Positions 1 to 16,688 of a stretch of DNA of 64,000 bases are shown one piece after another (the first letter of the stretch is position 1; each line of letters starts with the position of its first letter). The DNA is from Nitrosomonas sp. (GTDB taxonomy: Bacteria; Pseudomonadota; Gammaproteobacteria; Burkholderiales; Nitrosomonadaceae): the NCBI RefSeq assembly GCF_019635155.1, contig NZ_JAHBZY010000012.1:1-64000 (forward strand), written 5' to 3'. The translations under genes and the position numbers were made by a program. The notes below the pieces were generated by a model that was not told the origin of the DNA, made no database searches, and saw nothing but the letters and a program-made list of their open reading frames with translations.

Positions 1-391
1 CCAAGGATTAATAATTGCAATGCCGCAACCGGTAAAATCCTTGACATTTCGTGTGGCAATCGCTGCTCGCCTGCTGCTGGCGATGGCGGCAATCATCAGA
101 TCCACGGCATCGGTATTGATTCCATCGATTTCGCACGCCGCGGCAATTTCGCCGTAACGATAAGCGGCTTCTTCGTCGAAGGGGAAAATTCTGCCGCTGA
201 AAGCTTCGGCGATAAAATCCGAAAAGCTCGCAGTTAATTGGATCCGGCGCTTACCCACGCTGGATCTCTGCGATGGTGATTGCGGTGATAGCAAGATGTA
301 TCGGTTTTTGCGCTTTGATCCATTTTCTAACATTCGCATCGGATTGTTCGCGCATCAGCTCCGAAATAACGTTGGTATCCAGGACGATCAT
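1..391 (-). pseudogene. fitB: FitB/VapC-type PIN-domain toxin, frameshifted, 3' end cut by window edge
   Basis: The reading begins at an ATG overlapping the stop codon of the upstream antitoxin (ATGA) and gives MIVLDTNVISELM, the acidic N-terminus of PIN ribonucleases, then AITIAEIQRG. A TAA follows at once. Homology resumes in another frame (FSDFIAEAFSGRIFPF, then AVDLMIAAIA and TRNVKDFTGCGI, the conserved C-terminal block ending INPW). About ten codons normally found after the AEI-RG motif are missing, so a short out-of-frame deletion near position 250 has inactivated the toxin. In an intact system this would be a Mg-dependent tRNA/RNA-cleaving toxin neutralised by FitA. The gene runs to the window edge, so its stop is not seen. 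Confidence 0.85.
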
Positions 392-544
392 ACGTCAAAA
401 TCAACGACCTGACGTTTCGTGCCGCGCTTCGGCAAGTCAAGCGATACACCATGCTCCGAGCCGAAATACTTTTCCGCGATTTGTGCAATATCGGCGGACG
501 TGAATTCGTTGGCAAGCGATGCTTTCTGCAAAATATGGCGTACA
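337..544. repeat. 208-bp direct repeat, copy 1 (fitA 3' half plus fitB start)
   Basis: This segment matches 9347-9554 without gaps. I count about eight or nine differences, all transitions, concentrated in the toxin side; the last 110 or so bases are identical. Copy 1 lies inside the intact antitoxin and broken toxin genes. The two copies are in the same orientation, 9010 bp apart, and bracket the TIR-MoxR-FGE operon, so homologous recombination between them could delete or amplify that block. Confidence 0.85.
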
Positions 545-636
545 TAAGCTTCCAGTGAAACGCCCGCTTGCGCCGCACGCATGCACAGCAGTTCTTTGGT
601 TTTTTTGGGTAAATCCCGGATCGTGATGCTCGCCAT
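388..636 (-). CDS. fitA: FitA-type ribbon-helix-helix antitoxin
   Basis: The 82-residue protein begins with MASITIRDLPKKTKELL, the ribbon-helix-helix DNA-binding start typical of FitA/Phd-like antitoxins, followed by a helix (AGVSLEAYVRHILQ) and a C-terminal arm that would bind the toxin. Its TGA overlaps the toxin ATG, the usual toxin-antitoxin arrangement. It should bind its own promoter and neutralise the PIN toxin downstream, but that toxin is frameshifted here, so this is an orphan antitoxin in practice. A second, truncated copy of its 3' half lies at 9347-9554. Confidence 0.85.
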   Translation of the reverse strand: MASITIRDLPKKTKELLCMRAAQAGVSLEAYVRHILQKASLANEFTSADIAQIAEKYFGSEHGVSLDLPKRGTKRQVVDFDV

Positions 637-875
637 GCTTTTCTCTTATTGAGTGCCTATAAGTGCAATCAATGATGTCAAACTCAAGCGATAAAATCAA
701 TGGCAGGGCGGAAGTATTACAAGTTTTTGCATTAAACCTGGTTTGCTCGGCTGGAGTCGGCGTATCTGATGTTGGTTGCTGAGAGGGTTTGTTTTTTGTA
801 GAGTGAATCAGAAAGCGTCATCCACCGTGATACAGTTTCATGCGATGCCGCTTGGTGCATTGTGTTGTACTGCGC

Positions 876-953
876 TTAACGGCGCCTACAAGACCGCAGA
901 TGGTGTACCGGATTATTGTTCCAGGAACCGCCGCGCACCACGCGGGCCTCATC
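876..953 (-). pseudogene. Fragment of an FGE-domain C-terminus, possibly a relic DGR template repeat
   Basis: Read on the minus strand, this gives ARVVRGGSWNNNP, the block that precedes the variable end of the three full-length FGE-domain genes in this window. The 27 bases coding for ARVVRGGSW (947 down to 921) match those in the genes at 1100 and 9645 exactly. The next codons are AAC AAT AAT CCG G, after which similarity fades and a TAA follows at 878-876; a TGA lies just upstream in frame. It is either a decayed FGE paralogue or a relic template, because unmutated templates carry such AAC/AAT runs. The rest of 637-1009 shows no gene I can support. Confidence 0.6.
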
Positions 954-1033: not shown

Positions 1034-1050
1034 GCGCCGCTTCGCGGCGC
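1034..1050 (-). terminator. Rho-independent terminator of the TIR-MoxR-FGE operon
   Basis: A perfect 7-bp GC stem (GCGCCGC / GCGGCGC) closes a TTC loop. On the minus strand it is followed by a T-rich stretch (positions 1027 to 1010). It lies 50 bases past the stop of the FGE gene at 1100. The same hairpin with its flank recurs behind the gene at 9645. Confidence 0.7.
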
Positions 1051-1099: not shown

Positions 1100-3832
1100 T
1101 TATTCGATGGGGGACTCACATAACACCCGGAAGCCGAGACGGAAGTCCGGATGGTAGTCGTAGCGCACCGACGAGCGCACGATGTCCGGATTACTGCCCC
1201 AGGAACCGCCGCGCACCACGCGGGCAAAACTATCGGAAGCACATTGTTGCGGAGCATTATTCTGTGAATCATTGGAATAATCAGAACAAGTCCATTCCCA
1301 GACATTGCCTGACATATCGTGCAGTTTCCAGGGATTGGCTTTGAATTGACCGACCGGCGCAGCCTGCTGATTATCCCAGCGGCTGCCGCAACCATCGCAA
1401 TTGGCGTTATTTTTGCCCACATCACCGCCCCAATAATATTTTGTGGGAGTTCCGGCTCGCGCGGCGTATTCCCATTCAAATTCGGTCGGCAGGCGACAGC
1501 TTAACTTCGTACGTTCACTCAACCACGCGGCATAGTCCACTGCGTCTTTGTAATCCACATAAACGACCGGCTGATTGCCACGGCCGCCGGTTGCCGTATC
1601 GGGACTTTTTACCTGTATCCCTTTTTGTTGCTGCGCTTGGATATAGTCATCGTATTGCGCGTAAGTTACTTCATATTTCCCCAGGTAGAAAGGTTTTGCA
1701 ATTTGCACGGATTTACCGGGAGGGTCGCCGAAGTTGAAGGAGCCGGAGGGAATCAGTACCAGCGTGACCGGTATCGCAGGATCGCCTGGAGGCGCACTGA
1801 CCGGATCAATCAGGATCGATTCGCCTTTCCATCCCAACAACCCGAACAACAGACCCGCAGGCAGTAGCCACAGTAGCCCTTTGGCTATTCCGTAGGCAGG
1901 CATGCCTTGATGAAACAACCGTTTGCGCAAAACTTCCGGCAACCGCTGCGCAAGCCGCACCAACGGGCCACGGTGCAGAAAATCCACCAGTACCACATCG
2001 CGCGCCGGACCGCGGCGGCGGTGTAACCATGCCGCCAGCAATCGCTTGTGGCGGGCTAGTGTCAGCAATGGCGCGCCTTTGCCTTTGTCAATCGCATGTA
2101 TCAATCGTTTTTCGATGATTTGGCGGAAATGCGCTTCGCTGGTGGAATTGAGGCGATGAACCAATTGCAGCCGCAGCCAGGCGGGCATGAATGCATGACG
2201 GAACCAAGGCAAAGCGCCGATCGCGGCCATACCCAGCATTAAATCGCGGGAATCAGCATTTATTTCACGGCCGAGCACCAGCGTCATCGCAGGCGAAATT
2301 GCCGGAAAAATCGAGCAGGCACACAGCCATTGAAAGCGCTGTGCACCGAGATAATCGCGCAATTGAAACAGCAATTCTTCCTGAACCGTGTCAGGCGGTG
2401 CGTTACGTTGAATCACCCAGGCCAGCGCATTGTCGCGCAACAGAGATGGGTAATTCAGCGGCCAATCGGCGCCGACCGCCAAGCCGAGTTGCCCTGCTGA
2501 GAACCAACCCGCTGCGGTAGCGAGCGATTCGGGTTGCATCGGCAGCACCAGAAAACCCTGCTCGTCTGCAGCCTGTTCCGCCCAACTCCAAGCGTTCAAT
2601 GGCATGGGTGTCAGCCAGGCGCGCTGCGGAAAAGCATTCAAGAACGTGACCCAATGACGCGGCAAACCGGTAACTTCATCCACTAACGCCAATGCTTCGG
2701 CAAACATCAGCAAACGGTGCCCGGCGTAACGTGCAGCCAGCTCGGCGAAGGTGGTTTGTCCAAAACGTTCGCGTCCTTGCGCACCTGTGCGCATGCGCCA
2801 GCAACCGGTCTGAGGAGCGCCTTCGAAGTACAGTACGTCCGCGGCAACGCCGTTTTGCATCAAAGCGGCGATCAATGCATCGCTATAAGCGGCATGATGA
2901 TCGGCCGGGTGCCGTTGATCGATCAGCACCAGATATTCGGGTGTCTGTTTCAACAGCCGATAACGGAGCGACAATACGCCGCCAGCCTGCAGGGTAGCCC
3001 GGATGGTGGTTAGCGAATCCAGCGCAGTACGTTGTCCGGCATAAGGCTGACGCATTAACCGCGCAGCACTTCGGATAATAGTTGGTGCTGGTTCTAGCGG
3101 TACGGGATTGGGGTCGGTGAGGAAAAACTGTTCTATTTCCCGATCGGTGCGGGTGTTTTGTAGGTAAAGTTGACGCCGCCAATGCGCCCAGAGCAGCCAT
3201 AGCAGCATCAGCAGCGAAGCACCGCCAACCGTCAACAGAGTGGGTCGGGCTGCGGAAAACCATTCGGGTATTGCAGGTGCAACAGGAATTGAGGGTTGCG
3301 CAAATTCAAAAGTTAGTTCGGGTGGAGGCGGTTCTGGTGTTAATGGCGGCGAAGGCAGGGATTGCGCTGAATCACCGTTTGTTGCACTGAATCCTCCTTT
3401 ACTGGGGTCGATAGGTGGTTGAAAGGGGTTCCAAATCCCCAGTGCGATGATTGTCAGCAATACCAGCGCTCCTATAAGCAAGACTGCATGCCAGCGCTTG
3501 AATTTGCGTGATTCTGGGTCAGTCTGAGGGGAATTCCGATTCGCCGGATTTGGATCACTCGAATGATCATCGGCGCGCTGTTGTGTGGTGAATTGCGCCA
3601 GTAATGACGCATATTGGCGTTGTTGTTCCGGCTTGGTACAAAGTAATGGCCTGATGAATGCCAGAACCTCCGTTGCTGAGCGGTGTTGCACCAGCTCGCC
3701 ACGCACGGAAAGCTGTACCAGAAGTCTTTGCACTTGCAAGCGTTCGCGCACACCTATTTTGAATCCTGCTTGATCCAAATAGCTTAGCCAGGCATCGAGC
3801 ATGGCGCCCAAGCTGGGATCATTAAACGACAT
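1100..3832 (-). CDS. Membrane protein with EAD-like N-terminus, vWA-like middle and C-terminal FGE/C-type-lectin domain
   Basis: The 910-residue protein starts with a small helical domain (about 1-85) like the effector-associated domains of conflict systems, followed by transmembrane segments at about 115-133 and 198-216 with a proline-rich linker between. A region near 285-340 (YLVLIDQRHPADHH, then a helix) resembles a von Willebrand A fold; this is tentative. Residues from about 680 to the end form a formylglycine-generating-enzyme-like domain (IPSGSFNFGD, RLPTEFEWEYAARAG, SGNVWEWTCSD, RVVRGGSW, LGFRVLCES). Such domains often act as C-type-lectin-fold binding modules rather than enzymes. 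The gene starts 8 bases after the MoxR gene stop, so it is the last gene of the TIR-MoxR operon. Its last codons form a variable region. Confidence 0.8.
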   Translation of the reverse strand: MSFNDPSLGAMLDAWLSYLDQAGFKIGVRERLQVQRLLVQLSVRGELVQHRSATEVLAFIRPLLCTKPEQQRQYASLLAQFTTQQRADDHSSDPNPANRNSPQTDPESRKFKRWHAVLLIGALVLLTIIALGIWNPFQPPIDPSKGGFSATNGDSAQSLPSPPLTPEPPPPELTFEFAQPSIPVAPAIPEWFSAARPTLLTVGGASLLMLLWLLWAHWRRQLYLQNTRTDREIEQFFLTDPNPVPLEPAPTIIRSAARLMRQPYAGQRTALDSLTTIRATLQAGGVLSLRYRLLKQTPEYLVLIDQRHPADHHAAYSDALIAALMQNGVAADVLYFEGAPQTGCWRMRTGAQGRERFGQTTFAELAARYAGHRLLMFAEALALVDEVTGLPRHWVTFLNAFPQRAWLTPMPLNAWSWAEQAADEQGFLVLPMQPESLATAAGWFSAGQLGLAVGADWPLNYPSLLRDNALAWVIQRNAPPDTVQEELLFQLRDYLGAQRFQWLCACSIFPAISPAMTLVLGREINADSRDLMLGMAAIGALPWFRHAFMPAWLRLQLVHRLNSTSEAHFRQIIEKRLIHAIDKGKGAPLLTLARHKRLLAAWLHRRRGPARDVVLVDFLHRGPLVRLAQRLPEVLRKRLFHQGMPAYGIAKGLLWLLPAGLLFGLLGWKGESILIDPVSAPPGDPAIPVTLVLIPSGSFNFGDPPGKSVQIAKPFYLGKYEVTYAQYDDYIQAQQQKGIQVKSPDTATGGRGNQPVVYVDYKDAVDYAAWLSERTKLSCRLPTEFEWEYAARAGTPTKYYWGGDVGKNNANCDGCGSRWDNQQAAPVGQFKANPWKLHDMSGNVWEWTCSDYSNDSQNNAPQQCASDSFARVVRGGSWGSNPDIVRSSVRYDYHPDFRLGFRVLCESPIE
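1139..1198 (-). other. DGR-like variable region VR1 of the FGE domain
   Basis: These 20 codons lie between the constant RGGSW block and the constant LGFRVLC block. Against the equivalent segment at 9684-9752 there are 15 substitutions in 20 aligned codons; 14 are at codon positions 1 or 2 and 8 of the 9 changed codons keep their third base. The 27 bases before the region are identical, and the 30-odd after it differ at one base. This fits adenine-directed mutagenesis of AAC/AAT codons and does not fit ordinary divergence. Confidence 0.7.
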
Positions 3833-3840
3833 ATCGCTTG

Positions 3841-4818
3841 TCAGGTAAGCAGTGATTTTGCAATCTTGATGTCATCGCTGGTTTTGACCAGCGCACCCAA
3901 ACACATCGTCAATATTTCCTGTTGCTGCGCTAGCGGCTTATCCCACTCTAGCTTCGCTTTGGACAATGCTAACAACCAGTCGAGCAATTCGGATGTGGAA
4001 GGCTTTTTTGCCAATGCGGCCTGATTCCGCAATGCGAAGAAAAGTGCCAATGCGTCACGGTACGCCAGTTCGTCGAGTTGCAGTTGCTGCAATCGGCTGC
4101 CGAGAATTTCTTCAATTTCTGTTTGACTCTCGGGGAATTCGATATGGTGGTATACGCAGCGACGCAAGAAAGGTTCGGGCAATTGCTTCTCGGAATTACT
4201 GGTGATGATTACAATCGGATTGAATTCTCGATCTGCTTTGAAGCTGACACTCAACTCCGGGATGGAAAATTCCAAATTTTCGATCTGATTGAGTAAATCA
4301 TTAGGGAAATCCCGAGGGGCTTTGTCGATTTCATCAATGACGACGATCGAGGCGGTGGGTTTCTCATGCTGCCATTCAGGACCAAGACGTGCTTCCACAA
4401 CATGCGGATCGAGTGTACGCAAAATCGCCAGCCCCATTGCGGCAATTCGCACGAATTCCTTGTTTTGCGGCAATGGTTTACCGGCGGCTGCATTCAGTTG
4501 CGATTGGCCGAATTGACGGATGTTGTCGAAGTGATAAAAGAGATCGTTTGCCTGACTGGACGACTTGGTATCAAAACGCAATACTTCCGTCTTTTTCAGC
4601 TCTGTCGCCAGCCGGTAAGCGAGTTGCGTTTTGCCGGTCCCAGGCTCGCCGGTTAGCAGTAATGGCATTTTCAGCGCCAGAGCGACATTGACCGCATTGA
4701 CCAGATCAGTACCGGCCCGATACCCGCGTGGGTCATGAAAGGAGTCGACTTCACTTACCAGCGGATTGTTTGATGCGCCTTCGATCGGTCCTTGTCCCCG
4801 GAATTGATGGAATGTCAT
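3841..4818 (-). CDS. MoxR-type AAA+ ATPase
   Basis: This 325-residue protein has Walker A GEPGTGKT at 57-64, Walker B IVVIDEIDK near 158-166, a sensor-1 ITSNSEK stretch and the LPEPFLRRC arginine motif of the MoxR family. MoxR ATPases remodel or load partner proteins, usually together with a von Willebrand A protein. It sits 24 bases downstream of the TIR gene and 8 bases upstream of the FGE membrane protein, so all three are probably made from one transcript. In the TIR/MoxR/vWA conflict systems described by comparative genomics the ATPase is thought to couple sensing to effector release; that role here is inference. Confidence 0.88.
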   Translation of the reverse strand: MTFHQFRGQGPIEGASNNPLVSEVDSFHDPRGYRAGTDLVNAVNVALALKMPLLLTGEPGTGKTQLAYRLATELKKTEVLRFDTKSSSQANDLFYHFDNIRQFGQSQLNAAAGKPLPQNKEFVRIAAMGLAILRTLDPHVVEARLGPEWQHEKPTASIVVIDEIDKAPRDFPNDLLNQIENLEFSIPELSVSFKADREFNPIVIITSNSEKQLPEPFLRRCVYHHIEFPESQTEIEEILGSRLQQLQLDELAYRDALALFFALRNQAALAKKPSTSELLDWLLALSKAKLEWDKPLAQQQEILTMCLGALVKTSDDIKIAKSLLT

Positions 4819-4842
4819 ATGTGCCCTTTTCTTGTTAATCGA

Positions 4843-6213
4843 TTACAAAATTTCGTTAATTTTAGAGGCAAATTTGCGCATGCGTAGCGGCTGGATCAGC
4901 AAATTCGCAAAATTCCGCAGCAAATCTTCTTCACTGATACGTTGTAATTTCTCGACATGAACACGATACCATTGGATGATATCTTCTTTGCCAATGTCTC
5001 TGAGTGGCATGATGTCGACAAGATGCGTCCGTTGATAACCTGATATCTTCAATGTTTTTTGAAGGTCTTTTTCAGTTATCAGTTCGCTGTCTTCCAGCAT
5101 CATTGCAATGACCAACCGGTTTAGCTGTGCTTCCGCCGAGCAATGCTCAAGCAAATCCAGCAATACACGAATACCTGCAGCAGTATTTTTTTTCGGTTCT
5201 TTAGGTAGATCGGTCACCAGCGTAATAACGCCTGACGACGCGGAAAGCCAGCGACTCAGTGTAGCTTCGTCCGTTAGTTGATAGGGATTTCCCGTCAATG
5301 CATCCGACAAAGCGCTCATCATAGTGGCCATCATTTCTTGAGCGTTCGATTTTTCTTCTTTGTTGAATGGCCAAATAAAGCGCTTTGTCTCCAGCAATTG
5401 CGCATTGCGCACGGTTAAATAATCGCTAAGGTTTTTGTGGTGTAAACGCTTCCAGAAATTTGGCAAATCATCATCGTGGATACCCTTTGTCAACACCAGC
5501 AGCGCCGTATTGCTCCAAAGTTTGACTCGTTTGTTGAATTCATTGACCGCAGCGGTTTGATTACAAAAATAGGGTAGTAGTGGAACGAATTTGTGCTGAG
5601 AAGCTGCGGATGTCACCGCTTTTATAGTTTGTGATTGTTCCGGTTGCGTGGGTTGTGCGGATATTGCCGCGGTAATTTCCGCGGTAATTTGTTTGGCGAC
5701 CTCGTTCCATACATGAGCACGATCTTTTCCAATCCAGTCGGAAACCGGTTTGAGTGAAAATTCGATATCCTTGGGCAAAGCTCCCAGTTTGCCAAGATTT
5801 CGCTTTTGGCGATCTCCCGGGATTGGCAATTTTTCCCAAGGGCAAGGATTTAGTATTACTTGGATGATGGGTAACGATCGACTAACTGCAAAGGCGAGCT
5901 CACGTAAATAGCAAAATTCTGAATTAAGTGAATTAACGCTCACCAGAAAAATAAAATATTCCGCTTGATCAAGTGCAGATTGAATTGATTCGTCCCAATC
6001 TTTACCGGCGCGTAGTTTATTGCGGTCAAAAAACACTTGATCCGGTGAGATAAACAATTCTGGCAAACCTTGCAGTTGCAACTTAAAATGATCCATAAAC
6101 TGCCGGGCATCATCAGAATCTTTATGCGAATACGACACAAAAATCCGGCAACTCTTGTTTTCCGGTTTAACTGAATCGGCCGTTTGTTGAGTTGTCAGAA
6201 TCGGTAGTGCCAT
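4843..6213 (-). CDS. TIR-domain protein, first gene of the TIR-MoxR-FGE operon
   Basis: The N-terminal domain, about residues 20-165, is a TIR fold: CRIFVSYSHKDSDDA forms the first strand and loop, FFDRNKLRAGKDWDESI the second, and SEFCYLRELAFAV carries the glutamate (about E105) in the position of the NADase catalytic residue. The C-terminal 250 residues contain helical blocks with strands such as SNTALLVLTKG and SGVITLVTDLP but no P-loop. They could be an inactive STAND-like module, though I do not recognise it firmly. The likely role is an NAD-cleaving effector triggered by the downstream MoxR and FGE proteins. It is read from the 6214-6430 intergenic region. Confidence 0.85.
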   Translation of the reverse strand: MALPILTTQQTADSVKPENKSCRIFVSYSHKDSDDARQFMDHFKLQLQGLPELFISPDQVFFDRNKLRAGKDWDESIQSALDQAEYFIFLVSVNSLNSEFCYLRELAFAVSRSLPIIQVILNPCPWEKLPIPGDRQKRNLGKLGALPKDIEFSLKPVSDWIGKDRAHVWNEVAKQITAEITAAISAQPTQPEQSQTIKAVTSAASQHKFVPLLPYFCNQTAAVNEFNKRVKLWSNTALLVLTKGIHDDDLPNFWKRLHHKNLSDYLTVRNAQLLETKRFIWPFNKEEKSNAQEMMATMMSALSDALTGNPYQLTDEATLSRWLSASSGVITLVTDLPKEPKKNTAAGIRVLLDLLEHCSAEAQLNRLVIAMMLEDSELITEKDLQKTLKISGYQRTHLVDIMPLRDIGKEDIIQWYRVHVEKLQRISEEDLLRNFANLLIQPLRMRKFASKINEIL

Positions 6214-6430
6214 TCAAATTTGAAAATCATAATCAGGGAATATTCTTTTGTTATCAAATACGGCACAAAAAACTGCATGATCGTCGTTAATATCAATGCT
6301 TACAAACGATAGCTATTGCTCGGATTTTAGCGTATTTTCTACAAGAATCTCTACTTCAAAAATTTCTGCAATCATCCTGACTTGCTGTGAATGGGATTGG
6401 GATATACCTATGATTGGGCATCCGCATAGC

Positions 6431-6600
6431 CGCACCGGTGAGCGCTCGGCGGTGCAGGAAGTGCAACAGATGCACGGTTTGACGGTTACGCCGATGATTT
6501 GGTCGCCTATTTGCACCATCACCCGGAACTGTCGCAACATTTGCATGCGGTGCAACAGTACCGGGACCGGTATGGCGTGAATGCATGCGCAAACGATTTG
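6431..6600 (+). pseudogene. pyrE: 3' fragment of orotate phosphoribosyltransferase
   Basis: In one frame the sequence reads TGERSAVQEVQQMHGLTVTPM and in the next DDLVAYLHHHPELSQHLHAV then QQYRDRYGV. Together these match the C-terminal end of PyrE (SAVQEVE, then a DDLIAYL helix and YREEYGV). The two parts are joined by a frameshifting deletion at a GATGAT repeat near 6496. No upstream part of the gene is present. It is a stranded remnant, suggesting a rearrangement breakpoint between the TIR operon and the redox cassette. The rest of 6214-6696 has no supported gene. Confidence 0.75.
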
Positions 6601-6696
6601 CTGCGTCGGGCGGTGCTCAGAAAATCTCTTATCCTATTGATATTCCTGGTTTTCTGTACTCCATCTGAAACGCTGATGAAAATTGATTAACCGTTT

Positions 6697-7668
6697 TTAT
6701 TTCATATGTTTATCAAAAAACGGGATTATTTTTTCAGGGTGTTTTCCGAAATAATTGTATCCATCCTTAAATCGCCGGGTGGTTCCTTCAATCCAGAGCA
6801 GCTCCTTCTTTTTGCTTCCTAAAAGATCGAAGGTTTTTTGCGCGTCCTCAGGATTTTTCGTCCACGCATCGTCTTTGACTTGAACCATCAATACCGGCAT
6901 TTTTACGCCATGAGCCGATAAATGCGGTGTCATTTCATCCATCAGAAAAGCGCCTGCTTTCAGCAATTCGAAATCCAGTAAGTCCAGATACTGGTCAACA
7001 CCTTGCAGTTCGGAAAATGCCTGATAAATGGCTCTCATGGACACCACCATCGGACTGCATAAACACCGTACATTTTCGAATAACTCCGGATGCCTGTTGA
7101 TAGCTTCATACTGTGAATTGCCACCCATGCATTGGCTGTATAAGCCGACCTTCATTTTGCCCAATCTCGGATGGTGATCGACATACCTCTTTACCCCCAC
7201 GCAGTCGCGCCATTCGATCTGTCCGATACCGCTCACGCCATTATTGGAAGCGCCGCTTCGTCCGTGATTCCGGATATCGTACGCAAGCACGTTATACCCA
7301 GCATCGGTCAGGTGTTTCATCTGGATGACGAAATCAATTTCCACGGCATCGTATGTGCTCCAAGGTTCTCCGAAGTGGCCTTGGAAGCCTGCGCGGCACA
7401 TCGGAAGGGCATGGTTAAAAATAACCAATTTATCGCTTTCACCGCCTTTGGCAGGAATATACCAGCCTTCCAATGGTACGCCGTCTTCGGCAGGGAAGAA
7501 AATATCTTCCCATCCCGTCATGCCATAATCGTCCGGCGTTTTATGAAGAACGCTTCTGAAAGGCTTCACTACATTGACCATGCCTTTGATCTTCGCATAA
7601 TCCGCGTCGGAGATTGTCTTTAATTGCGCCAAGGCGTTGGACATTCTTTCTTCTGACATTCTACTCAT
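6697..7668 (-). CDS. Alpha/beta hydrolase with a probable cysteine nucleophile
   Basis: The 323-residue protein has the alpha/beta-hydrolase pattern: a first strand VIFNHALPMCRAG with an oxyanion-hole HxxP-like turn, YDIRNHGRSG, and a nucleophile elbow GLYSQCMGGNS in which cysteine holds the usual serine position. An aspartate candidate lies in MVQVKDDAW. The terminal histidine is less clear; FGKHPEK is a candidate. The start is chosen for the AAGGAG six bases upstream. It lies 20 bases downstream of the flavodoxin gene, so the two form an operon opposite an AraC regulator. The substrate is unknown. Confidence 0.8.
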   Translation of the reverse strand: MSRMSEERMSNALAQLKTISDADYAKIKGMVNVVKPFRSVLHKTPDDYGMTGWEDIFFPAEDGVPLEGWYIPAKGGESDKLVIFNHALPMCRAGFQGHFGEPWSTYDAVEIDFVIQMKHLTDAGYNVLAYDIRNHGRSGASNNGVSGIGQIEWRDCVGVKRYVDHHPRLGKMKVGLYSQCMGGNSQYEAINRHPELFENVRCLCSPMVVSMRAIYQAFSELQGVDQYLDLLDFELLKAGAFLMDEMTPHLSAHGVKMPVLMVQVKDDAWTKNPEDAQKTFDLLGSKKKELLWIEGTTRRFKDGYNYFGKHPEKIIPFFDKHMK

Positions 7669-7688
7669 GGCTTTCTCCTTGTTAGGGG

Positions 7689-8309
7689 TTAGTTTTCTGC
7701 AAACAATGCTGCAACTTCGCTCAAAAATTCTTCGGTCGATAGTTGACTGCCCATACGTCCTCGAATGACTGCTTTATGCTCAAATGATTTGGCGCCATTT
7801 CTCATGACGAGGGATTTGAATTCATCAATGTAGTCCTGCCCGTAATTGCTGTTGTAAGAATTGAAAAACACCACATCCTTGCCATCGAAGCGATTATTTT
7901 CTGCAAATTTCCAGATAGGAGGGGAAGGCCGATAGAACCATATCGGCGAACCCAGATAGATTTTGTTGTATTTGGAAAGATCGATAGTTTGTGGCGTAAT
8001 TTCAACTTCATGATCCTGAAAAGACATGGCGGCGTTTGCTAATCCTGTCAAGCCGATTTCATATTTGGGCGCTTCTATAGCGATGAGCTCCGCATCGAAC
8101 ATTTCAGCGATCTTGTTCGCCATAATCGCGGTATTGCCCGAGCGTGAAAAATAAATGACGGCGACATCCGATTGCTTCGATGATTGTGATTTCGCAAGCA
8201 AATCGCTGTTCTTATCAAACTGGCTTCTTTCTATCGAAGTAATGATTACAGGTGCAATGATTGCAGCCAGAATCAGAATGGAGATCGTATAAAACAGCAC
8301 TTTTTTCAT
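7689..8309 (-). CDS. Membrane-anchored flavodoxin
   Basis: This 206-residue protein has an N-terminal transmembrane anchor (about 5-26) and then a flavodoxin-like domain. The phosphate-binding loop is YFSRSGNTAIMA at about 54-65 and the flavin-stacking loops contain GSPIWFYRPSPP and NSYNSNYGQDY. Similar small flavodoxins bind FMN and act as electron carriers or quinone reductases. The anchor is unusual for a flavodoxin and would tether it to the membrane. It precedes the hydrolase gene and is divergent from an araC-family gene at 8451, which probably controls both. Confidence 0.85.
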   Translation of the reverse strand: MKKVLFYTISILILAAIIAPVIITSIERSQFDKNSDLLAKSQSSKQSDVAVIYFSRSGNTAIMANKIAEMFDAELIAIEAPKYEIGLTGLANAAMSFQDHEVEITPQTIDLSKYNKIYLGSPIWFYRPSPPIWKFAENNRFDGKDVVFFNSYNSNYGQDYIDEFKSLVMRNGAKSFEHKAVIRGRMGSQLSTEEFLSEVAALFAEN

Positions 8310-8450
8310 TTTTCCTTCAGGTTCCTGATTTTGAGTAGCTTATTTCGTTTATCAAAACTCTCCTATCATAAAACTCTGAGATTCTTGCCTAAAAGTCTAT
8401 GAATCAGGAAGAGTGCATTCTTTTGTGCAATATCCGGTTACACTTTATCT

Positions 8451-9329
8451 ATGAAAGAAAACCTGAAAGAGCTTATTGAAATCGTAGATAAACTGAATCT
8501 GTCCGAGGGAATCAATGAAACAGCGATTCCTATCTTAACGATTCGCAAACATTCGGAGTCAATCACTGCGCACAGCATCTTCACACCGTTATTCTGTCTT
8601 AATTTGCAGGGTAACAAAGAAATCGATTTAGGCGATGAACATTATTTTTATGGCCCCGGACAATTCATTCTAGTATCGGCTGAGCTTGCCTTGACGGGTC
8701 GAGTAACAAACGTCAGCAAGAAGAATCCATTCTACGGAATAATCATTGAAATCGATCCGCTCTTGATCATCGATGTTTTAAAAGACATGCCTTTTTATAA
8801 AAAGGACAAATCGACGCCAAAGCGGGCATTGGTCGTCAACACGGCTGACAATAAAATCTTCGATGCCACGAAACGTTTATTGCTGACTCTCAATGCAAAA
8901 GATGAAATCCCTATTCTTTCCAAACTCTACATCAAGGAGATATTATTTCGGCTGCTACAGATAGATAGCGGACAAACGTTGGCACAGTTAGGATTGATGG
9001 GTAGTCAATTTCAAAGAATTAAAAACTCGATTTCTTTTATCACCAATAATTTCAAAGATAAACTCAATGTCGATGAATTGGCGCATGCGGCTGGCATGAG
9101 CACGGCATCATTTCATAAATTTTTTAAAGAAGTCACGGGCTTTAGCCCCATCCAGTTTCAGAAAAAAATAAGACTGATAGAAGCCAGAGGATTAATATTG
9201 TCCAACTCAAAAGGCATTTCCGATATTGCGTTCAGTGTGGGCTATGAAAGCCCCTCGCAATTCAGCAGGGAATATTCCAGAAAGTTTGGTATCTCGCCGA
9301 ATGAAGAGCGCTTATTAAAAAAACATTAG
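8451..9329 (+). CDS. AraC-family transcriptional regulator
   Basis: This 292-residue protein has an N-terminal AraC_N-type ligand domain (FTPLFCLNLQGNKEI, HYFYGPGQFILVS) and a C-terminal double helix-turn-helix (LNVDELAHAAGMSTASFHKF and ISDIAFSVGYESPSQFSREY). It is divergent from the flavodoxin-hydrolase pair with a 141-base gap that should carry both promoters. Regulators of this type respond to small molecules, often aldehydes or other reactive compounds; the inducer cannot be read from the sequence. No strong ribosome binding site precedes the ATG. Confidence 0.9.
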   Translation: MKENLKELIEIVDKLNLSEGINETAIPILTIRKHSESITAHSIFTPLFCLNLQGNKEIDLGDEHYFYGPGQFILVSAELALTGRVTNVSKKNPFYGIIIEIDPLLIIDVLKDMPFYKKDKSTPKRALVVNTADNKIFDATKRLLLTLNAKDEIPILSKLYIKEILFRLLQIDSGQTLAQLGLMGSQFQRIKNSISFITNNFKDKLNVDELAHAAGMSTASFHKFFKEVTGFSPIQFQKKIRLIEARGLILSNSKGISDIAFSVGYESPSQFSREYSRKFGISPNEERLLKKH

Positions 9330-9346
9330 CGCTTCCAAGACTTTTG

Positions 9347-9554
9347 CGTCGGATTGTTCGCGCATCAGTTCCGAGATAACGCTGGCATCCAGGGCGATCA
9401 TACGCCAAAATCAACGGCCTGACGTTTCGTGCCGCGCCTCGGCAAGTCAAGCGATACACCATGCTCCGAGCCGAAATACTTTTCCGCGATTTGTGCAATA
9501 TCGGCGGACGTGAATTCGTTGGCAAGCGATGCTTTCTGCAAAATATGGCGTACA
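9347..9554 (-). pseudogene. fitA/fitB remnant, copy 2 of the 208-bp repeat
   Basis: The minus strand codes for the last 50 or so residues of a FitA antitoxin (RHILQKASLANEFTSADIAQ onward, stop at 9398), then an ATGA-overlapping toxin start, MIALDASVISELM, which runs only 28 codons. The antitoxin N-terminus and almost all of the toxin are gone. Its upstream edge is fused directly to the terminator region of the next FGE gene. It is the partner of the 337-544 segment, and the join marks a deletion breakpoint at about 9555. Confidence 0.8.
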
Positions 9555-9578
9555 CGAAAATAAAGCAAAAATCGCGCG

Positions 9579-9595
9579 GCGCCGCTTCGCGGCGC
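9579..9595 (-). terminator. Rho-independent terminator of the first TIR-STAND-FGE gene
   Basis: The same 7-bp GCGCCGC/GCGGCGC hairpin with TTC loop as at 1034-1050, followed on the minus strand by a T-rich tract (TTTTTGCTTTATTTTC). It sits 50 bases after the stop codon at 9645. Homology to the other copy runs on through the stop codon into the coding end of the gene. Confidence 0.7.
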
Positions 9596-9644
9596 ACAGT
9601 GAACAGCATTGCAGCGCATCAGCGTTCAGCGCGCCAGCGAACCG

Positions 9645-12440
9645 TTATTCGATAGGGGACTCACATAACACCCGGAAGCCGAGAAGGTTGCTACGATTGA
9701 CCGGATGGATGAGGTCGCGCACCGACGAGCGCACGTTGACCGGATTAAAGTACCAGGAACCGCCGCGCACCACGCGGGCCTGAGTATCGGTTACTTCACT
9801 GTTGCAATGCTGCTCATTTTCGTCAAACCGATCACGCCAGTTCGAACAGGTCCATTCCCAAACGTTACCTGACATATCGTGCAAACCGTATTTGTTGGCG
9901 GAGAAACTGCCCACCGGTGCCGCTTCTTGGTTATCCCAGGAACTGCCGCAGCCGTCACAATTGGCATTGTTGCTGCCGGGTTCGTCACCCCAATGGTAAG
10001 CGCTCGTGGTACCGGCGCGTGCCGCAAATTCCCATTCCGCTTCGGTCGGCAAGCGGCATTGCTTGCCTGTTTGTTCACTTAACCAGCGTGTATAGGCCAT
10101 TGCGTCAAACCAATTGACATTGACGACCGGCCGGTCGCCACGCCCGCCTTTGGCGGTATTCGGAAAAGTAATCGCCGTATTACCCGAGCGATGTTGCTGC
10201 CAAACGTAATAATCGTATTGCTCGTAGGTGATTTCGGTTATACCCAGGTAAAAAGGTTGCTCAATGGAAACTGATTTACCGGGCACCCCAAAGTGTTTTT
10301 CAGCTTCGTCGAGTTGAGCGATAAATGCCGCATCTTGTTCGCCCATGTTGAAGGAACCGGAAGGAACGGTGGTTAAAGCTGGCAGTATGGGGTCTCCAAA
10401 ACGGAAGCGCTGCAACGTCCAGATCATATCCGGGGATAGGTCATGCCGCTGCACCCAGGCAATCGATTCCATGGCATATCCAGCTATCATCGCGAGCATG
10501 GAGATCAATCCAAGCTGCACTCGCCGGCTCCAAGCCAGAAAACGCCCCTCGATCGAATGTTTGGGAATGCGTAATTGGCGAAATTTATTGAGTCCGAACC
10601 AGCGCAAGTTCCAGATGCGCCCAAAGCCTTTGCTGTGCTGCCATTGTTGGCTTTCATGAATCAATAGCTGACGGTAGTGGTCACGATCGCGGTTATTGTC
10701 GATGTAATCGAATAGCGTCGGCCAATAACCAACCCATTTCCCGGTTGCGGTATCTTTGCTACGTGCGCGGATCAATGTTTCGTGGATCAGATCGGCATAC
10801 TGCCGGTCTTGTTCTTGATTGATCGTAATCAAACGTAGTACATCGTGATGTTCGGTATGCATGACTGCGTGGTCGCGTTGACCGGAAAGCATGCCGACGA
10901 CTTTGCGGCCGGTTTTATCGTCGCCATTGCCTGCGACAAAGACTGCTTCTTCCAAGGCAACACGTTGACGGGTATGGCGGCCTTCGTCGTTGATTCGCGT
11001 CAGGCGCAGCAGTAATTCCAACGCGGCCAATTTTCCTTGCGGCACCGCCTGATCGATGCGGGCCAGCAATGCATCGGCTTGGTTGCTCAGCATGCCGGCG
11101 ATGCCGCCTTGTTGTTGATACAACTTACCACTGAGCTTGTGGTCTTGCCGCTGCTGCCACAGCAACAACAACGCATTTTCCACCAGCGGCAACGCGCCGA
11201 TTTCGTCTTGGGTGTCCTTCAGGATCGCGGTGGTGATTTCGCTGACATCGAGACCTGCCAGCTTGGCGGGTTGTTCAATACAGTCTTGCAAGCCTTGCGC
11301 GGAAATCAACGGCAGGAAATAGCGCTTGCAGCAGTCGTTATAAACCGTTTGTAGTTTCGGCAGATATTCGAACCGGTCGAGAAAGTCCGCGCGCACGGTG
11401 TTGATCAGAAACAAGGGGCATTCCGGATCGGCCAGCGCATGGGCGAGCAATGCATCGAACTGTTTGCGTTCGGTTTCATCGGCGAAAGTGAACAGTTCTT
11501 CGAATTGGTCGACGATCAGAAGATAAGCGGTTTGCGTCGATGAAGTGCGATAGGCTTTGATCGCATCAGCGAGAGAGGCCGGTTTTTCGAGCTGAATCAT
11601 TTCCGCCAGCTTAAGGCGTTCTAACGGTTCATCGGTCAGCCCAAAGATGAGCGCATCCCGCAGGCTTTTCACTGGATTTTTACCGGGCATCATCGGCCTA
11701 AGGATGCGCCATTTCGCAAAACCGGTGCGCTCCAGCAAGAAACCTTGCTCGATCAGCGGTAGCATGCCGGCGTTCACCAGCGACGATTTGCCGGAACCGC
11801 TGTTGCCTTCGATCTGCAGCCAGCGAAAGTATTTCTCGCCGTGGCTACGCTGCGTTCTTTGCGGATCGATGCGATGTTGATCGCCCAAACCTTCCAAGGC
11901 TCTCAGCGTTTCCTGGCGGCGCCCGAAAAATAAAGGTGCATGTTGCCTGCCAAAAGCGCTCAAACCCAGAAAAGGGCGACCTTCAAATGTTATGGCATTT
12001 CCGTTGCGGGTGGCGCGGCTTTGGATCGCTGCAATTAACTGAGGTGGCAGTGGTTCGGATATATCCCAACGAACCGATTGGAACGACGACAGAAATGCGG
12101 GCAATGGTATCGATTGCGTATCCTCCAGCAGAACCGGAAAAATCGGTAGTGATTCCGATTCTCCAGCCTTGGCGTAATGCCGCCGCAGCGCCACATGATA
12201 TTCCGCACCTACCCAACGCTGCACGCCGTCTTTGCCGATCAGCAACACGAACGCTGCGCATTGTTCCAGTGCTTTCTCCAATTCGGTAATCCATTCATCG
12301 CCGGGTTGAATGTTGTCTTCATCGCGAAACGCGCTTAAACCGGCTTTTTCCAATTCGGTGCGTAATTGCACGCAAGCTGCACGATCGGCTCGGCTGTAGC
12401 TGATGAATACCTGAGAGGTAGTTTGTGTTTCAGGCGGCAT
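9645..12440 (-). CDS. TIR-STAND NTPase-FGE sensor/effector protein, copy A
   Basis: The 931-residue protein contains a TIR domain (about 8-140; VFISYSRADRAACVQL, with W76 and the likely catalytic E80 in RWVGAEYHVAL). A STAND-type NTPase follows: LSAFGRQHAPLFFGR entry motif, Walker A GNSGSGKSS at 212-220, Walker B LLIVDQFEEL near 307-316. There is one transmembrane segment near 655 and a C-terminal FGE/C-type-lectin-like domain from about 690. A single chain thus joins ligand sensor, switch and NADase-type effector, as in antiphage STAND proteins. Its paralogue lies 3.1 kb upstream as a tandem copy. The last codons form VR2. Confidence 0.88.
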   Translation of the reverse strand: MPPETQTTSQVFISYSRADRAACVQLRTELEKAGLSAFRDEDNIQPGDEWITELEKALEQCAAFVLLIGKDGVQRWVGAEYHVALRRHYAKAGESESLPIFPVLLEDTQSIPLPAFLSSFQSVRWDISEPLPPQLIAAIQSRATRNGNAITFEGRPFLGLSAFGRQHAPLFFGRRQETLRALEGLGDQHRIDPQRTQRSHGEKYFRWLQIEGNSGSGKSSLVNAGMLPLIEQGFLLERTGFAKWRILRPMMPGKNPVKSLRDALIFGLTDEPLERLKLAEMIQLEKPASLADAIKAYRTSSTQTAYLLIVDQFEELFTFADETERKQFDALLAHALADPECPLFLINTVRADFLDRFEYLPKLQTVYNDCCKRYFLPLISAQGLQDCIEQPAKLAGLDVSEITTAILKDTQDEIGALPLVENALLLLWQQRQDHKLSGKLYQQQGGIAGMLSNQADALLARIDQAVPQGKLAALELLLRLTRINDEGRHTRQRVALEEAVFVAGNGDDKTGRKVVGMLSGQRDHAVMHTEHHDVLRLITINQEQDRQYADLIHETLIRARSKDTATGKWVGYWPTLFDYIDNNRDRDHYRQLLIHESQQWQHSKGFGRIWNLRWFGLNKFRQLRIPKHSIEGRFLAWSRRVQLGLISMLAMIAGYAMESIAWVQRHDLSPDMIWTLQRFRFGDPILPALTTVPSGSFNMGEQDAAFIAQLDEAEKHFGVPGKSVSIEQPFYLGITEITYEQYDYYVWQQHRSGNTAITFPNTAKGGRGDRPVVNVNWFDAMAYTRWLSEQTGKQCRLPTEAEWEFAARAGTTSAYHWGDEPGSNNANCDGCGSSWDNQEAAPVGSFSANKYGLHDMSGNVWEWTCSNWRDRFDENEQHCNSEVTDTQARVVRGGSWYFNPVNVRSSVRDLIHPVNRSNLLGFRVLCESPIE
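9684..9752 (-). other. DGR-like variable region VR2 of the FGE domain
   Basis: These 23 codons lie between RGGSW and LGFRVLC. Compared with VR1 there are 14 first/second-position changes and one third-position change; three extra codons (AGC AAC CTT) are inserted. The invariant codons (AAT CCG, GTG CGC TCG TCG GTG CGC, CAT CCG, CGT) are mostly adenine-free. The flanks are almost the same as in VR1, although the rest of the two FGE domains differ at many synonymous sites. Confidence 0.7.
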
Positions 12441-12660
12441 AATGGAAGTTTGCGATGTCTTGATCTCGCGATTATAAGTCGATCATAAATTTCTCACTAT
12501 ACTCGGAATGACAGTTTCTTAGCGCTTACTTAGACTTCGGTGTCGTTGTTTGATTGTTTGACGCACGTTGTCCGGGGAAGCCGGTATGATACGAGATCGG
12601 GAGGTGGGAATGTCAAAGGTTTTGGTGATCGGCGCGACCGGTCAGATTGGCGCGGGGTTG
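12441..12660. repeat. Duplicated upstream segment of TIR-STAND-FGE genes, copy A
   Basis: This segment (gene start, intergenic promoter region and first codons of tdh) is nearly identical to 15562-15782, offset by about 3121 bp, with a single-base indel in a T run. It shows that the unit [TIR-STAND-FGE gene + intergenic + start of tdh] was tandemly duplicated. The region includes the likely promoter of the minus-strand gene. I see nothing else in 12697-12762. Confidence 0.85.
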
Positions 12661-12696
12661 ATGCTGCCGCAAATGGCGAGCCGCGTGACCGCGTGA
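12610..12696 (+). pseudogene. Truncated 5' copy of tdh left by tandem duplication
   Basis: A GGGAGGTGGGA ribosome binding site and 28 codons starting MSKVLVIGATGQIGAG copy the beginning of the tdh gene at 15732 and then leave the homology, ending at a TGA. Only the start of the NAD-binding motif (GATGQIG) remains. It is non-functional but may still be transcribed from the duplicated promoter. Confidence 0.85.
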
Positions 12697-12762
12697 GTGA
12701 CTTTGCGTGATTTCACTTTGCGAAGTGCGGGGTAAACCACAAAGCCCGGCCACGATATGCCG

Positions 12763-15561
<2,799 letters not shown>

Positions 15562-15782
15562 AATGAATGCTTGCGATGTCTTGATCTTGCGATTATAAGT
15601 CGATCATAAATTTCCCGCTGCATTCGGAATGACAGTTTTTTTAGCGCTTACTTAGACTTCGGCATTGTTGCTTGATTGTTTGACGCACATTGTCCGGGGA
15701 AGCCGGTATGATACGAGATCGGGAGGTGGGAATGTCAAAGATTTTGGTGACCGGCGCGACCGGTCAGATTGGCACCGAGTTG
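15562..15782. repeat. Duplicated upstream segment of TIR-STAND-FGE genes, copy B
   Basis: Partner of 12441-12660. It holds the divergent promoter region between the TIR-STAND-FGE gene and tdh, and the first 50 or so bases of the intact tdh. Because here it joins a complete tdh, this is likely the ancestral arrangement and the 12.4-kb copy the derived one. Confidence 0.85.
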
Positions 15783-16688
15783 ACGCTGGCGCTGCGTGAG
15801 CGCTATGGAGCTGACAACGTGATCGCTGCCGGGCATCGCCGCGAACCGTCCGGCGTTCTGGCGCAGACCGGATCGTATTGCAGCCTCGATGTGCGCGATG
15901 CTGCGGCGCTCGAAGCAGTGGTGGCCGGGCATGGCATTACAGCGATTTATCATCTGGCGGCGTTGCTTTCGGCGGTGGCGGAAGAACAGCCGTTGCGCGC
16001 TTGGGATATCAATATGAATGGTTTGCTCAATGTGCTCGAATGTGCGCGGCAGCACGGCTGCCAAGTGTTTTTCCCGAGCTCGATCGCTGCATTCGGTCCC
16101 GGCACGCCGCCGTTCGATACGCCGCAAGATACCGTGCAGCATCCGTCGACGATCTATGGTATTACCAAAGTGACCGGTGAATTATTATGTGATTATTACT
16201 ACCATCGCTATGGCGTTGATGCGCGTGGTGTGCGCTATCCGGGATTAATTTCGAACCAGGTGCTGCCGGGCGGTGGCACCACCGACTATGCCGTCGATAT
16301 TTTTTATGCAGCGGTGAAGCTGCGGCATTACGATTGTTTTTTGCGCGCGGATACGCAACTCGACATGATGTACATGCCCGATGCCATTGCGGCGGCGATG
16401 CAATTGATGGCAGCCGATGCCGGCCGGTTGACGCACCGCAACGGTTTTAACGTCACTGCGATGAGTTTTACCCCGGCGCAATTGGCGGCAGCGATTCAGC
16501 AGCACTGGCCGGATTTCACTATCGGTTATACGATCGATCCGCTGCGGCAGGCGATCGCCGATTCCTGGCCGCGCCACATGGATGACAGTGCCGCCCGCGC
16601 CGAATGGGGTTGGCAGCCGCGCTACGATTTGGCGGCGATGGTGGACGATATGCTGCAGCATATTGCGGCGAAATTGCGTAATGAATAA
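15732..16688 (+). CDS. tdh: L-threonine 3-dehydrogenase, SDR type (NAD-dependent epimerase family)
   Basis: I start the protein at the ATG at 15732, because GGGAGGTGGGA lies just upstream and MSKILVTGATGQIG then gives the Rossmann start; an earlier ATG at 15690 has no such support. Other marks are the HLAALLSAVAE stretch, PSSIAAFGP and the catalytic YGITK. The fold is that of extended SDR epimerases, and the SDR-type threonine dehydrogenases belong here. The next gene, 12 bases on, is a 2-amino-3-ketobutyrate CoA ligase, so the pair converts threonine to 2-amino-3-ketobutyrate and then to glycine and acetyl-CoA. That neighbour is the main reason for the specific name. Confidence 0.85.
   Translation: MSKILVTGATGQIGTELTLALRERYGADNVIAAGHRREPSGVLAQTGSYCSLDVRDAAALEAVVAGHGITAIYHLAALLSAVAEEQPLRAWDINMNGLLNVLECARQHGCQVFFPSSIAAFGPGTPPFDTPQDTVQHPSTIYGITKVTGELLCDYYYHRYGVDARGVRYPGLISNQVLPGGGTTDYAVDIFYAAVKLRHYDCFLRADTQLDMMYMPDAIAAAMQLMAADAGRLTHRNGFNVTAMSFTPAQLAAAIQQHWPDFTIGYTIDPLRQAIADSWPRHMDDSAARAEWGWQPRYDLAAMVDDMLQHIAAKLRNE

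What the first reader, a model, noticed from the sequence alone, without database searches (positions are those of the whole stretch)
1100..15561. Three FGE-domain genes carry variable C-termini with the mutation pattern of a diversity-generating retroelement
Between constant RGGSW and (L/V)GFRVLC blocks, VR1 (1139-1198) and VR2 (9684-9752) differ by 15 substitutions over 20 aligned codons; 14 are at positions 1 or 2, and 8 of 9 changed codons keep their third base C or T. All changed codons are NNC/NNT, as expected if the template had AAC/AAT. The flanks are near-identical (27 bases before the same, one difference in the 30-odd after), although the rest of the two FGE domains differ at synonymous sites. 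FGE-like C-type-lectin domains are known DGR targets. The combination here is TIR-STAND and TIR-MoxR conflict proteins with hypervariable sensors.
Basis: partly seen in the sequence, partly recalled or inferred. Interest (0 to 1): 0.88.

Follow-up and report, generated by a model that had tools for sequence, protein, structure and literature searches.

The report
Orphaned targets of a lost retroelement
Immune-sensor-like genes in this ammonia-oxidising bacterium carry end regions that were scrambled by a mutation-making retroelement, but in the assembled genome that retroelement is in pieces, so the sensors look frozen as it left them.

Summary
VR1 and VR2 differ at 15 bases, all at codon positions 1 or 2 and all where a relative's template repeat (TR) has adenine. 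Other genomes of the genus (Nitrosomonas) hold complete cassettes; in 6 within-genome TR-VR pairs, 87 of 98 differences are at TR adenines (Fisher 5e-44). A 40-base TR remnant lies at 908-947; VR1, VR2 and a fourth VR on contig C47 match it at every non-A base, VR3 does not. The machinery is dismantled here: TR truncated, RT left only as 3'-end fragments (window 791-851 and 12678-12773; contig C3), Avd not found. The assembly has 49 contigs, so an RT in a gap or on an unassembled plasmid is not excluded. Of 85 genomes of the genus, 31 hold VR-like DNA but 4 a full-length type-A RT. One single-contig genome (G020) has three VRs and only a 42-residue RT scar. The same VR type is fused to TIR-nSTAND1, DUF4062-nSTAND1, SEFIR/TIR-NACHT and KAP proteins. 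DGR-diversified conflict sensors, in Nitrosomonas too, are published; repeated RT loss with targets retained is the newer part.

The parts
1100..3832 (-). VP1: 910-aa protein with C-terminal FGE domain; no other Pfam family found in the rest
1127..1213 (-). VR1 core (RGGSW to GFR), 87 nt, 9 nt shorter than VR2
1034..1050 (-). 7-bp stem, 3-nt loop hairpin 49 nt after the VP1 stop
   Evidence: position worked out
908..947 (-). truncated template repeat, including AACAATAATCCGG
791..851 (-). scar of the RT 3' end, homologous to the RT-end fragment on contig C3
   Evidence: score 56, best of 200 shuffles 34
394..636 (-). FitA-like antitoxin gene (vapB/fitA type) that follows the RT in genome G011
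254..391 (-). start of a PIN toxin gene, frame stops early
3841..4818 (-). MoxR-like AAA ATPase upstream of VP1
4843..6213 (-). TIR-domain protein upstream of VP1
9645..12440 (-). VP2: TIR-nSTAND1-FGE, 931 aa
9672..9767 (-). VR2 core, 96 nt
9579..9595 (-). hairpin 49 nt after the VP2 stop
9339..9589 (-). partial second copy of the antitoxin/PIN pair after VP2
12763..15561 (-). VP3: TIR-nSTAND1-FGE, 932 aa
12790..12894 (-). VR3 core, 105 nt, diverged at non-adenine positions too
12678..12773 (-). RT fragment (residues 243-274 of the G033 RT) directly after VP3

Best explanation
VR1, VR2 and VR4 are target regions of a type-A DGR. When it was active, RNA of an A-rich template (TR) was copied by an error-prone RT with Avd, random bases entered opposite template adenines, and the cDNA replaced the 3' end of FGE (C-type-lectin fold) sensor genes. 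One template served targets at different places, including targets whose N-terminal parts belong to different conflict systems (TIR-nSTAND1, DUF4062-nSTAND1, and a MoxR/TIR-linked protein). In this genome the cassettes were then broken by deletions: TR 3' half, Avd and most of the RT are gone, and the target genes stayed open. The sensors are therefore probably fixed. Shown: adenine-specific pattern, complete cassettes in other genomes of the genus, template remnant, RT fragments, open target genes. Inferred: RT activity in the past, absence of any RT in the living strain, and the sensor/antiphage role of the proteins.
For: Adenine bias: 6 within-genome TR-VR pairs, 87 of 165 A sites changed against 11 of 411 non-A sites; VR1-VR2 differences 15 of 15 at template A. 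Local remnant: VR1 3, VR2 3, VR4 4 differences, all at A, none at 34 non-A bases. Column diversity over 36 VRs: mean entropy 1.67 bits at A columns, 0.45 at never-A columns. Cassettes in G033, G062 and G088: VR, TR about 285 bp further on, RT; Avd tested in G033 and G088, bAvd E 5e-19 and 5e-22. Dismantling: RT query in own genome finds only residues 261-336 on C3 and 243-274 after VP3; RT 3'-end scar and G011-like vapB flank after the TR remnant; no Avd (best E 0.08). VP2-VP3 dN/dS 0.21 over 927 codons.
Against: Draft assembly; the C3 RT fragment lies next to a repeat that ends the contig, so a gap could hide more. VR3 has 5 non-A differences. Against other genomes' TRs, VR1, VR2 and VR4 also show 3 to 13 non-A differences, as expected of diverged templates but not clean. 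Base spectrum fits published BPP-1 data only in part: T over G at the first A of AAC agrees, raised C at the second A is not seen. The hairpin was found after 19 of 44 target genes. The structure model was too poor to place the variable residues. No reads were available to see whether VRs still vary.
Confidence: 0.8

Rival explanations
1. The DGR is alive: an intact RT-Avd-TR cassette lies in an assembly gap or on an unassembled plasmid and diversifies the VRs in trans.
For: 49 contigs; an RT fragment sits 87 bp from the end of contig C3, next to a pyrE repeat. Trans action of one RT on other loci is reported in Thiohalocapsa (section read). VR1, VR2 and VR4 show no non-A change against the local remnant, so the last homing could be recent.
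Against: The RT fragment on C3 is fused to the pyrE repeat, so it is truncated, not merely cut by the contig end. RVT_1 finds nothing in the genome at E 0.001, RT residues 1-220 are found nowhere at E 10, and a VR-DNA search finds no second TR although it does find the 40-base remnant. Plasmid hits of the RT are at most 46.5% identical.
Confidence: 0.15
2. The target genes were imported already mutated from another strain and were never diversified in this lineage.
For: The VR type is patchy: 31 of 85 genomes; targets occur with many different N-terminal parts.
Against: The genome keeps a TR remnant that matches VR1, VR2 and VR4 at all non-A bases, and fragments of RT after VP1 and VP3 and on C3: whole cassettes were once here. 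They may themselves have been imported.
Confidence: 0.1
3. Ordinary positive selection or gene conversion between paralogues, no retroelement.
For: VP1 and VP2 share a near-identical 3' block that reaches beyond the VR into the flank, so recombination between them has also happened.
Against: Restriction of differences to template adenines, with actual templates, RT and Avd in other genomes of the genus.
Confidence: 0.02
4. The genes are decaying leftovers without function.
For: Several orphan targets elsewhere are short or broken, for example 42 aa in G029, 70 aa in G063 and 142 and 148 aa in G008.
Against: All four targets in this genome are open over 907-932 aa and VP2-VP3 dN/dS is 0.21, though that average includes the time before RT loss.
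Confidence: 0.15

Closest known systems
DGRs of conflict-system sensors in Thiohalocapsa PB-PSB1 and other multicellular bacteria (Dore et al. 2024, PMC10907252; passages and one section seen)
   Same: FGE/CLec C-termini diversified at codon positions 1 and 2, targets with nSTAND1, NACHT, TIR or a MoxR ATPase next door; incomplete loci with truncated RTs; Nitrosomonas named as a carrier of related DGRs.
   Different: There, 8 of 9 loci still vary in nature and trans-acting RTs are present; here no RT is found in the assembled genome and many genomes of the genus hold targets without RT.
Cyanobacterial remote variable proteins, e.g. all3226 with remnant TR-VR homology and no RT nearby (Vallota-Eastman et al. 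2020, PMC7517822; passages seen)
   Same: Target kept after the diversifying parts are gone; authors suggest removal once a good variant is selected.
   Different: Here the scars of the lost RT and the cut template are still readable, and the loss recurs across a genus.
Treponema denticola TvpA (PDB 2y3c)
   Same: FGE-type C-type-lectin variable protein; matches the VP2 FGE domain at E 1e-16.
   Different: Not fused to TIR or STAND domains (recalled).
Type-B DGRs of the same genus (G006, G009, G022), MoxR next to an FGE target
   Same: MoxR gene about 40% identical to the window's, target with distant similarity to the N-terminal part of VP1 (24-26%), A-rich TR and RT.
   Different: RT only 38-40% identical to type A; VP1 carries a type-A VR, and its FGE domain is closer to VP2/VP3 (55-57%) than to type-B targets (38-43%).

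Membership tests
Diversity-generating retroelement (type A of this genus, as seen in G033, G062, G088) | VR-TR near-repeat pair with differences at TR adenines | tested here: met
   87 of 98 differences at adenines in 6 pairs from 4 genomes
Diversity-generating retroelement (type A of this genus, as seen in G033, G062, G088) | Reverse transcriptase next to the TR | tested here: met
   G033, G062 and G088; RVT_1 over cut-off in G033 and G088. The sequence LPIGNLTSQ, recalled as typical of DGR RTs, is in both; no library used here names a DGR RT family.
Diversity-generating retroelement (type A of this genus, as seen in G033, G062, G088) | Accessory protein Avd | tested here: met
   bAvd PF22296 over cut-off in G033 and G088; not looked for in the others
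Diversity-generating retroelement, window locus itself | Intact RT in the genome | tested here: not met
   only RT 3'-end fragments; draft assembly
Diversity-generating retroelement, window locus itself | Intact TR | tested here: not met
   40-base remnant only
Diversity-generating retroelement, window locus itself | Avd | tested here: not met
   best own-genome match E 0.08 with a stop inside
DGR target (variable protein) | VR at the 3' end of a gene with a C-type-lectin-like (FGE) domain | tested here: met
DGR target (variable protein) | Homing signals: 3' end differing between VR and TR, hairpin after the VR | tested here: inconclusive
   4 of 4 TRs read TCCCACAT where most VRs read TCCCCCAT; hairpin after VR1 and VR2, in 19 of 44 targets against 32 of 880 mononucleotide shuffles, after 0 of 4 TRs. 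It may also be a transcription terminator.
DGR target (variable protein) | Ongoing A-site variation in a population | not testable with these tools
   needs reads of the strain
MoxR-vWA ternary conflict system (Kaur et al. 2020) | MoxR ATPase, vWA protein and a third component | tested here: inconclusive
   MoxR-like ATPase, TIR protein and VP1 are adjacent; no vWA domain was reported by Pfam in these three

The most novel reading that the evidence does not exclude
Nitrosomonas treats a DGR as a passing sensor-maker: a cassette arrives, one template randomises the lectin ends of several unrelated conflict proteins, and the RT is then lost, leaving a fixed, selected set of sensors. Hypermutation would be a temporary phase, and genomes of the genus would be snapshots of different stages of it.
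Probability: 0.3. Interest if true: 0.75.

Novelty: new variant of a known kind. Interest (0 to 1): 0.52.

Why it matters
Why hypermutation systems are kept or dropped is open. This genus offers a natural comparison: genomes with target plus RT, genomes with target plus RT scar, and a single-contig genome with three open target genes and no RT. It makes testable whether diversified sensors are fixed after use. It also shows that one template type served sensors of several defence architectures, so the lectin end behaves as an exchangeable part.

Tried and rejected
AlphaFold2 on an alignment of 15 FGE domains gave mean pLDDT 61.8 with residues 177-239, which include the VR, under 50; I did not use it or search with it. 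The RT 3'-end comparison was negative for the RT ends of G033 (score 22, best shuffle 30) and G062 (29, best shuffle 37), where no vapBC follows; only C3 and G011 matched. A TR in G011 was not found by my pattern, though its RT is intact. G010 has a TR, but its contig ends soon after, so its RT status is unknown. The G026 and G085 hits in the count of 31 cover only the 3' part of the query and may not be VRs. Rows dropped: from 46 VR/TR-like rows I left out 4 TRs, one G086 TR-like row, 2 rows of L102 and 3 rows not 96 nt long (VR1, VR3, one of G063) for the 36-row column analysis. In one search, rows with 20 or more A in the core or under 100 nt of flank were left out. No NCBIfam or PHROGs model names a DGR RT; the best NCBIfam hit, group II RT, is far under its cut-off. 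PADLOC gives no family for VP1; the TIR proteins and the ATPase have partial matches only. Literature searches that bear on novelty: (open-access PMC only).

Full report
OBSERVATION. The window is the first 64 kb of contig C4 of a 3.09-Mb, 49-contig genome. Its genus is inferred to be Nitrosomonas: six of seven named contigs found with a VR-flank pattern have the same lengths as contigs of same-genus genomes (G008, G010, G022, G033, G062, G088), and all seven are titled Nitrosomonas. Three genes end in an FGE-sulfatase domain. VR1 and VR2 differ at 15 bases, 6/9/0 over codon positions, all at positions where the G062 template has A. VR2 and VR3 share more of the FGE body (510 of 608 bases) than VR1 and VR2 do (342 of 551), yet around the VR it is VR1 and VR2 that agree best (35 of 36 from GFRV to stop; VR2-VR3 29 of 36). 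The VP1-VP2 likeness goes on past the stop (93 of 114), so plain recombination between the two genes has also taken place.

TEMPLATES AND MACHINERY IN THE GENUS. A DNA search with VR1 led to other genomes in which an A-rich near-copy lies about 285 bp beyond the VR (G033, G062, G010; G088). In G033, G062 and G088 an RT follows, and in G033 and G088 an Avd gene lies between TR and RT on the opposite strand. In six TR-VR pairs from G033, G062, G010 and G088, 87 of 165 adenines and 11 of 411 other bases differ. Over 36 VRs the columns that are A in at least 3 of 4 TRs have mean entropy 1.67 bits, those that are A in none 0.45. Changed bases at sites that are A in all four TRs are G 215, T 202, C 67, with A kept 344 times. 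AAC codons became Tyr most often, 46 of 198. Against published BPP-1 results (passages) the T excess at the first A of AAC fits and the raised C before a cytosine does not.

WHAT IS LEFT IN THIS GENOME. RVT_1 gives no match at E 0.001. The G033 RT finds two places at E up to 10: residues 261-336 on C3 (71% identical) and 243-274 right after VP3 (63%). The C3 fragment starts where an 89-bp copy of the pyrE 3' end stops, and the contig ends with that copy. After VP1 comes a 40-base TR remnant (908-947); then, after an unassigned 56 bp, a 61-base stretch (791-851) like the RT 3' end of C3 (score 56, best of 200 shuffles 34); then a stretch and antitoxin gene like those after the RT of G011 (score 66, best shuffle 35). 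This is the order target-TR-RT-antitoxin with the middle removed. Avd is not found. After VP2 the flank runs into a partial second antitoxin/PIN copy. VR1, VR2 and VR4 (contig C47, a DUF4062-nSTAND1-FGE protein) match the local remnant at all 34 non-A bases and differ at 3, 3 and 4 of 6 A bases; VR3 differs at 2 A and 5 non-A bases. So the template that left this remnant, or one very like it, probably served at least VR1, VR2 and VR4; VR3 is older or belonged elsewhere.

HOW GENERAL. Of 85 genomes of the genus searched, 31 have VR-like DNA at E 1e-10 (G026 and G085 match only in part). Four of the 31 hold a full-length type-A RT (G011, G033, G062, G088; 78-100% identical); five more hold another RT aligned over at least 290 residues at 34-40% (G006, G019, G022, G104, G106); 22 hold neither by these limits. 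In six genomes (G002, G008, G016, G019, G020, G101) an RT 3'-end fragment lies within 60 bp of a VR and in convergent orientation, the same geometry as the second target in the complete cassettes of G033 and G088. G020 is a single contig; it has three VRs in open genes of 934, 990 and 1201 aa, no RVT_1 match and a 42-residue RT scar. So RT loss is not only a matter of draft assemblies. Against this, several orphan targets elsewhere are short or broken.

TARGETS. In this genome the four target genes are open over 907-932 aa and VP2-VP3 dN/dS is 0.21. Among the 18 relatives' and C47 targets scanned, the FGE end is joined to TIR-nSTAND1, DUF4062-nSTAND1, nSTAND1 alone, SEFIR/TIR-NACHT, TIR-NACHT, NACHT or KAP. 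VP1 has no named N-terminal domain, sits after MoxR and TIR genes, and its N-terminal part distantly resembles type-B targets beside MoxR (24-26%), while its FGE domain is closer to VP2 and VP3 (55-57%). An exchange of the lectin end between systems is the simplest reading. The VP2 FGE domain matches the solved DGR protein TvpA at E 1e-16.

HOW IT PROBABLY WORKS. Known for DGRs: error-prone copying of TR RNA and replacement of the VR. Inferred here by homology: past DGR action; the FGE end binds an invader molecule, the STAND or MoxR ATPase acts as switch, and TIR is the effector (compare Dore et al. 2024, passages). Not shown: any activity, ligand or protection.

KNOWN OR NEW. Dore et al. describe such sensors, incomplete loci and trans action, and name Nitrosomonas. 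Vallota-Eastman et al. describe a target with remnant homology and no RT nearby. In my searches I did not see a report of genus-wide retention of targets after RT loss; only open-access papers are covered. Outside the genus, the nearest RT in 399 sampled genomes of the order is 57% identical; plasmid and phage records reach 46.5% and 36% among the rows shown.

Noticed in passing
window 6429-6582 and G000:C3:112458-112546: Copies of the 3' end of pyrE lie near VP1's operon and at the end of contig C3 beside the RT fragment; the intact pyrE is on C3. In single-contig genome G029 a VR lies at the matching pyrE locus. pyrE may be an insertion hot spot for these modules.
   Followed up: partly
window 12201-12670 and 15322-15792: VP2 and VP3 look like a tandem duplication of about 3.12 kb that includes a 156-bp upstream stretch 92% identical.
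   Followed up: no
window 330-544 and 9340-9554: Antitoxin/PIN gene pieces, 95% identical, follow both VP1 and VP2; the PIN frame after VP1 stops early.
   Followed up: partly
L068:5352-5450 (G022): The second copy after the target, where a TR is expected, has non-A bases at the variable codons: perhaps a TR replaced by a VR sequence, then truncated.
   Followed up: no
L167 (G086:C113), about 4454: A TR-like row with an in-frame stop at the SW codon, in a genome with an RT broken by a stop: another cassette in decay.
   Followed up: no
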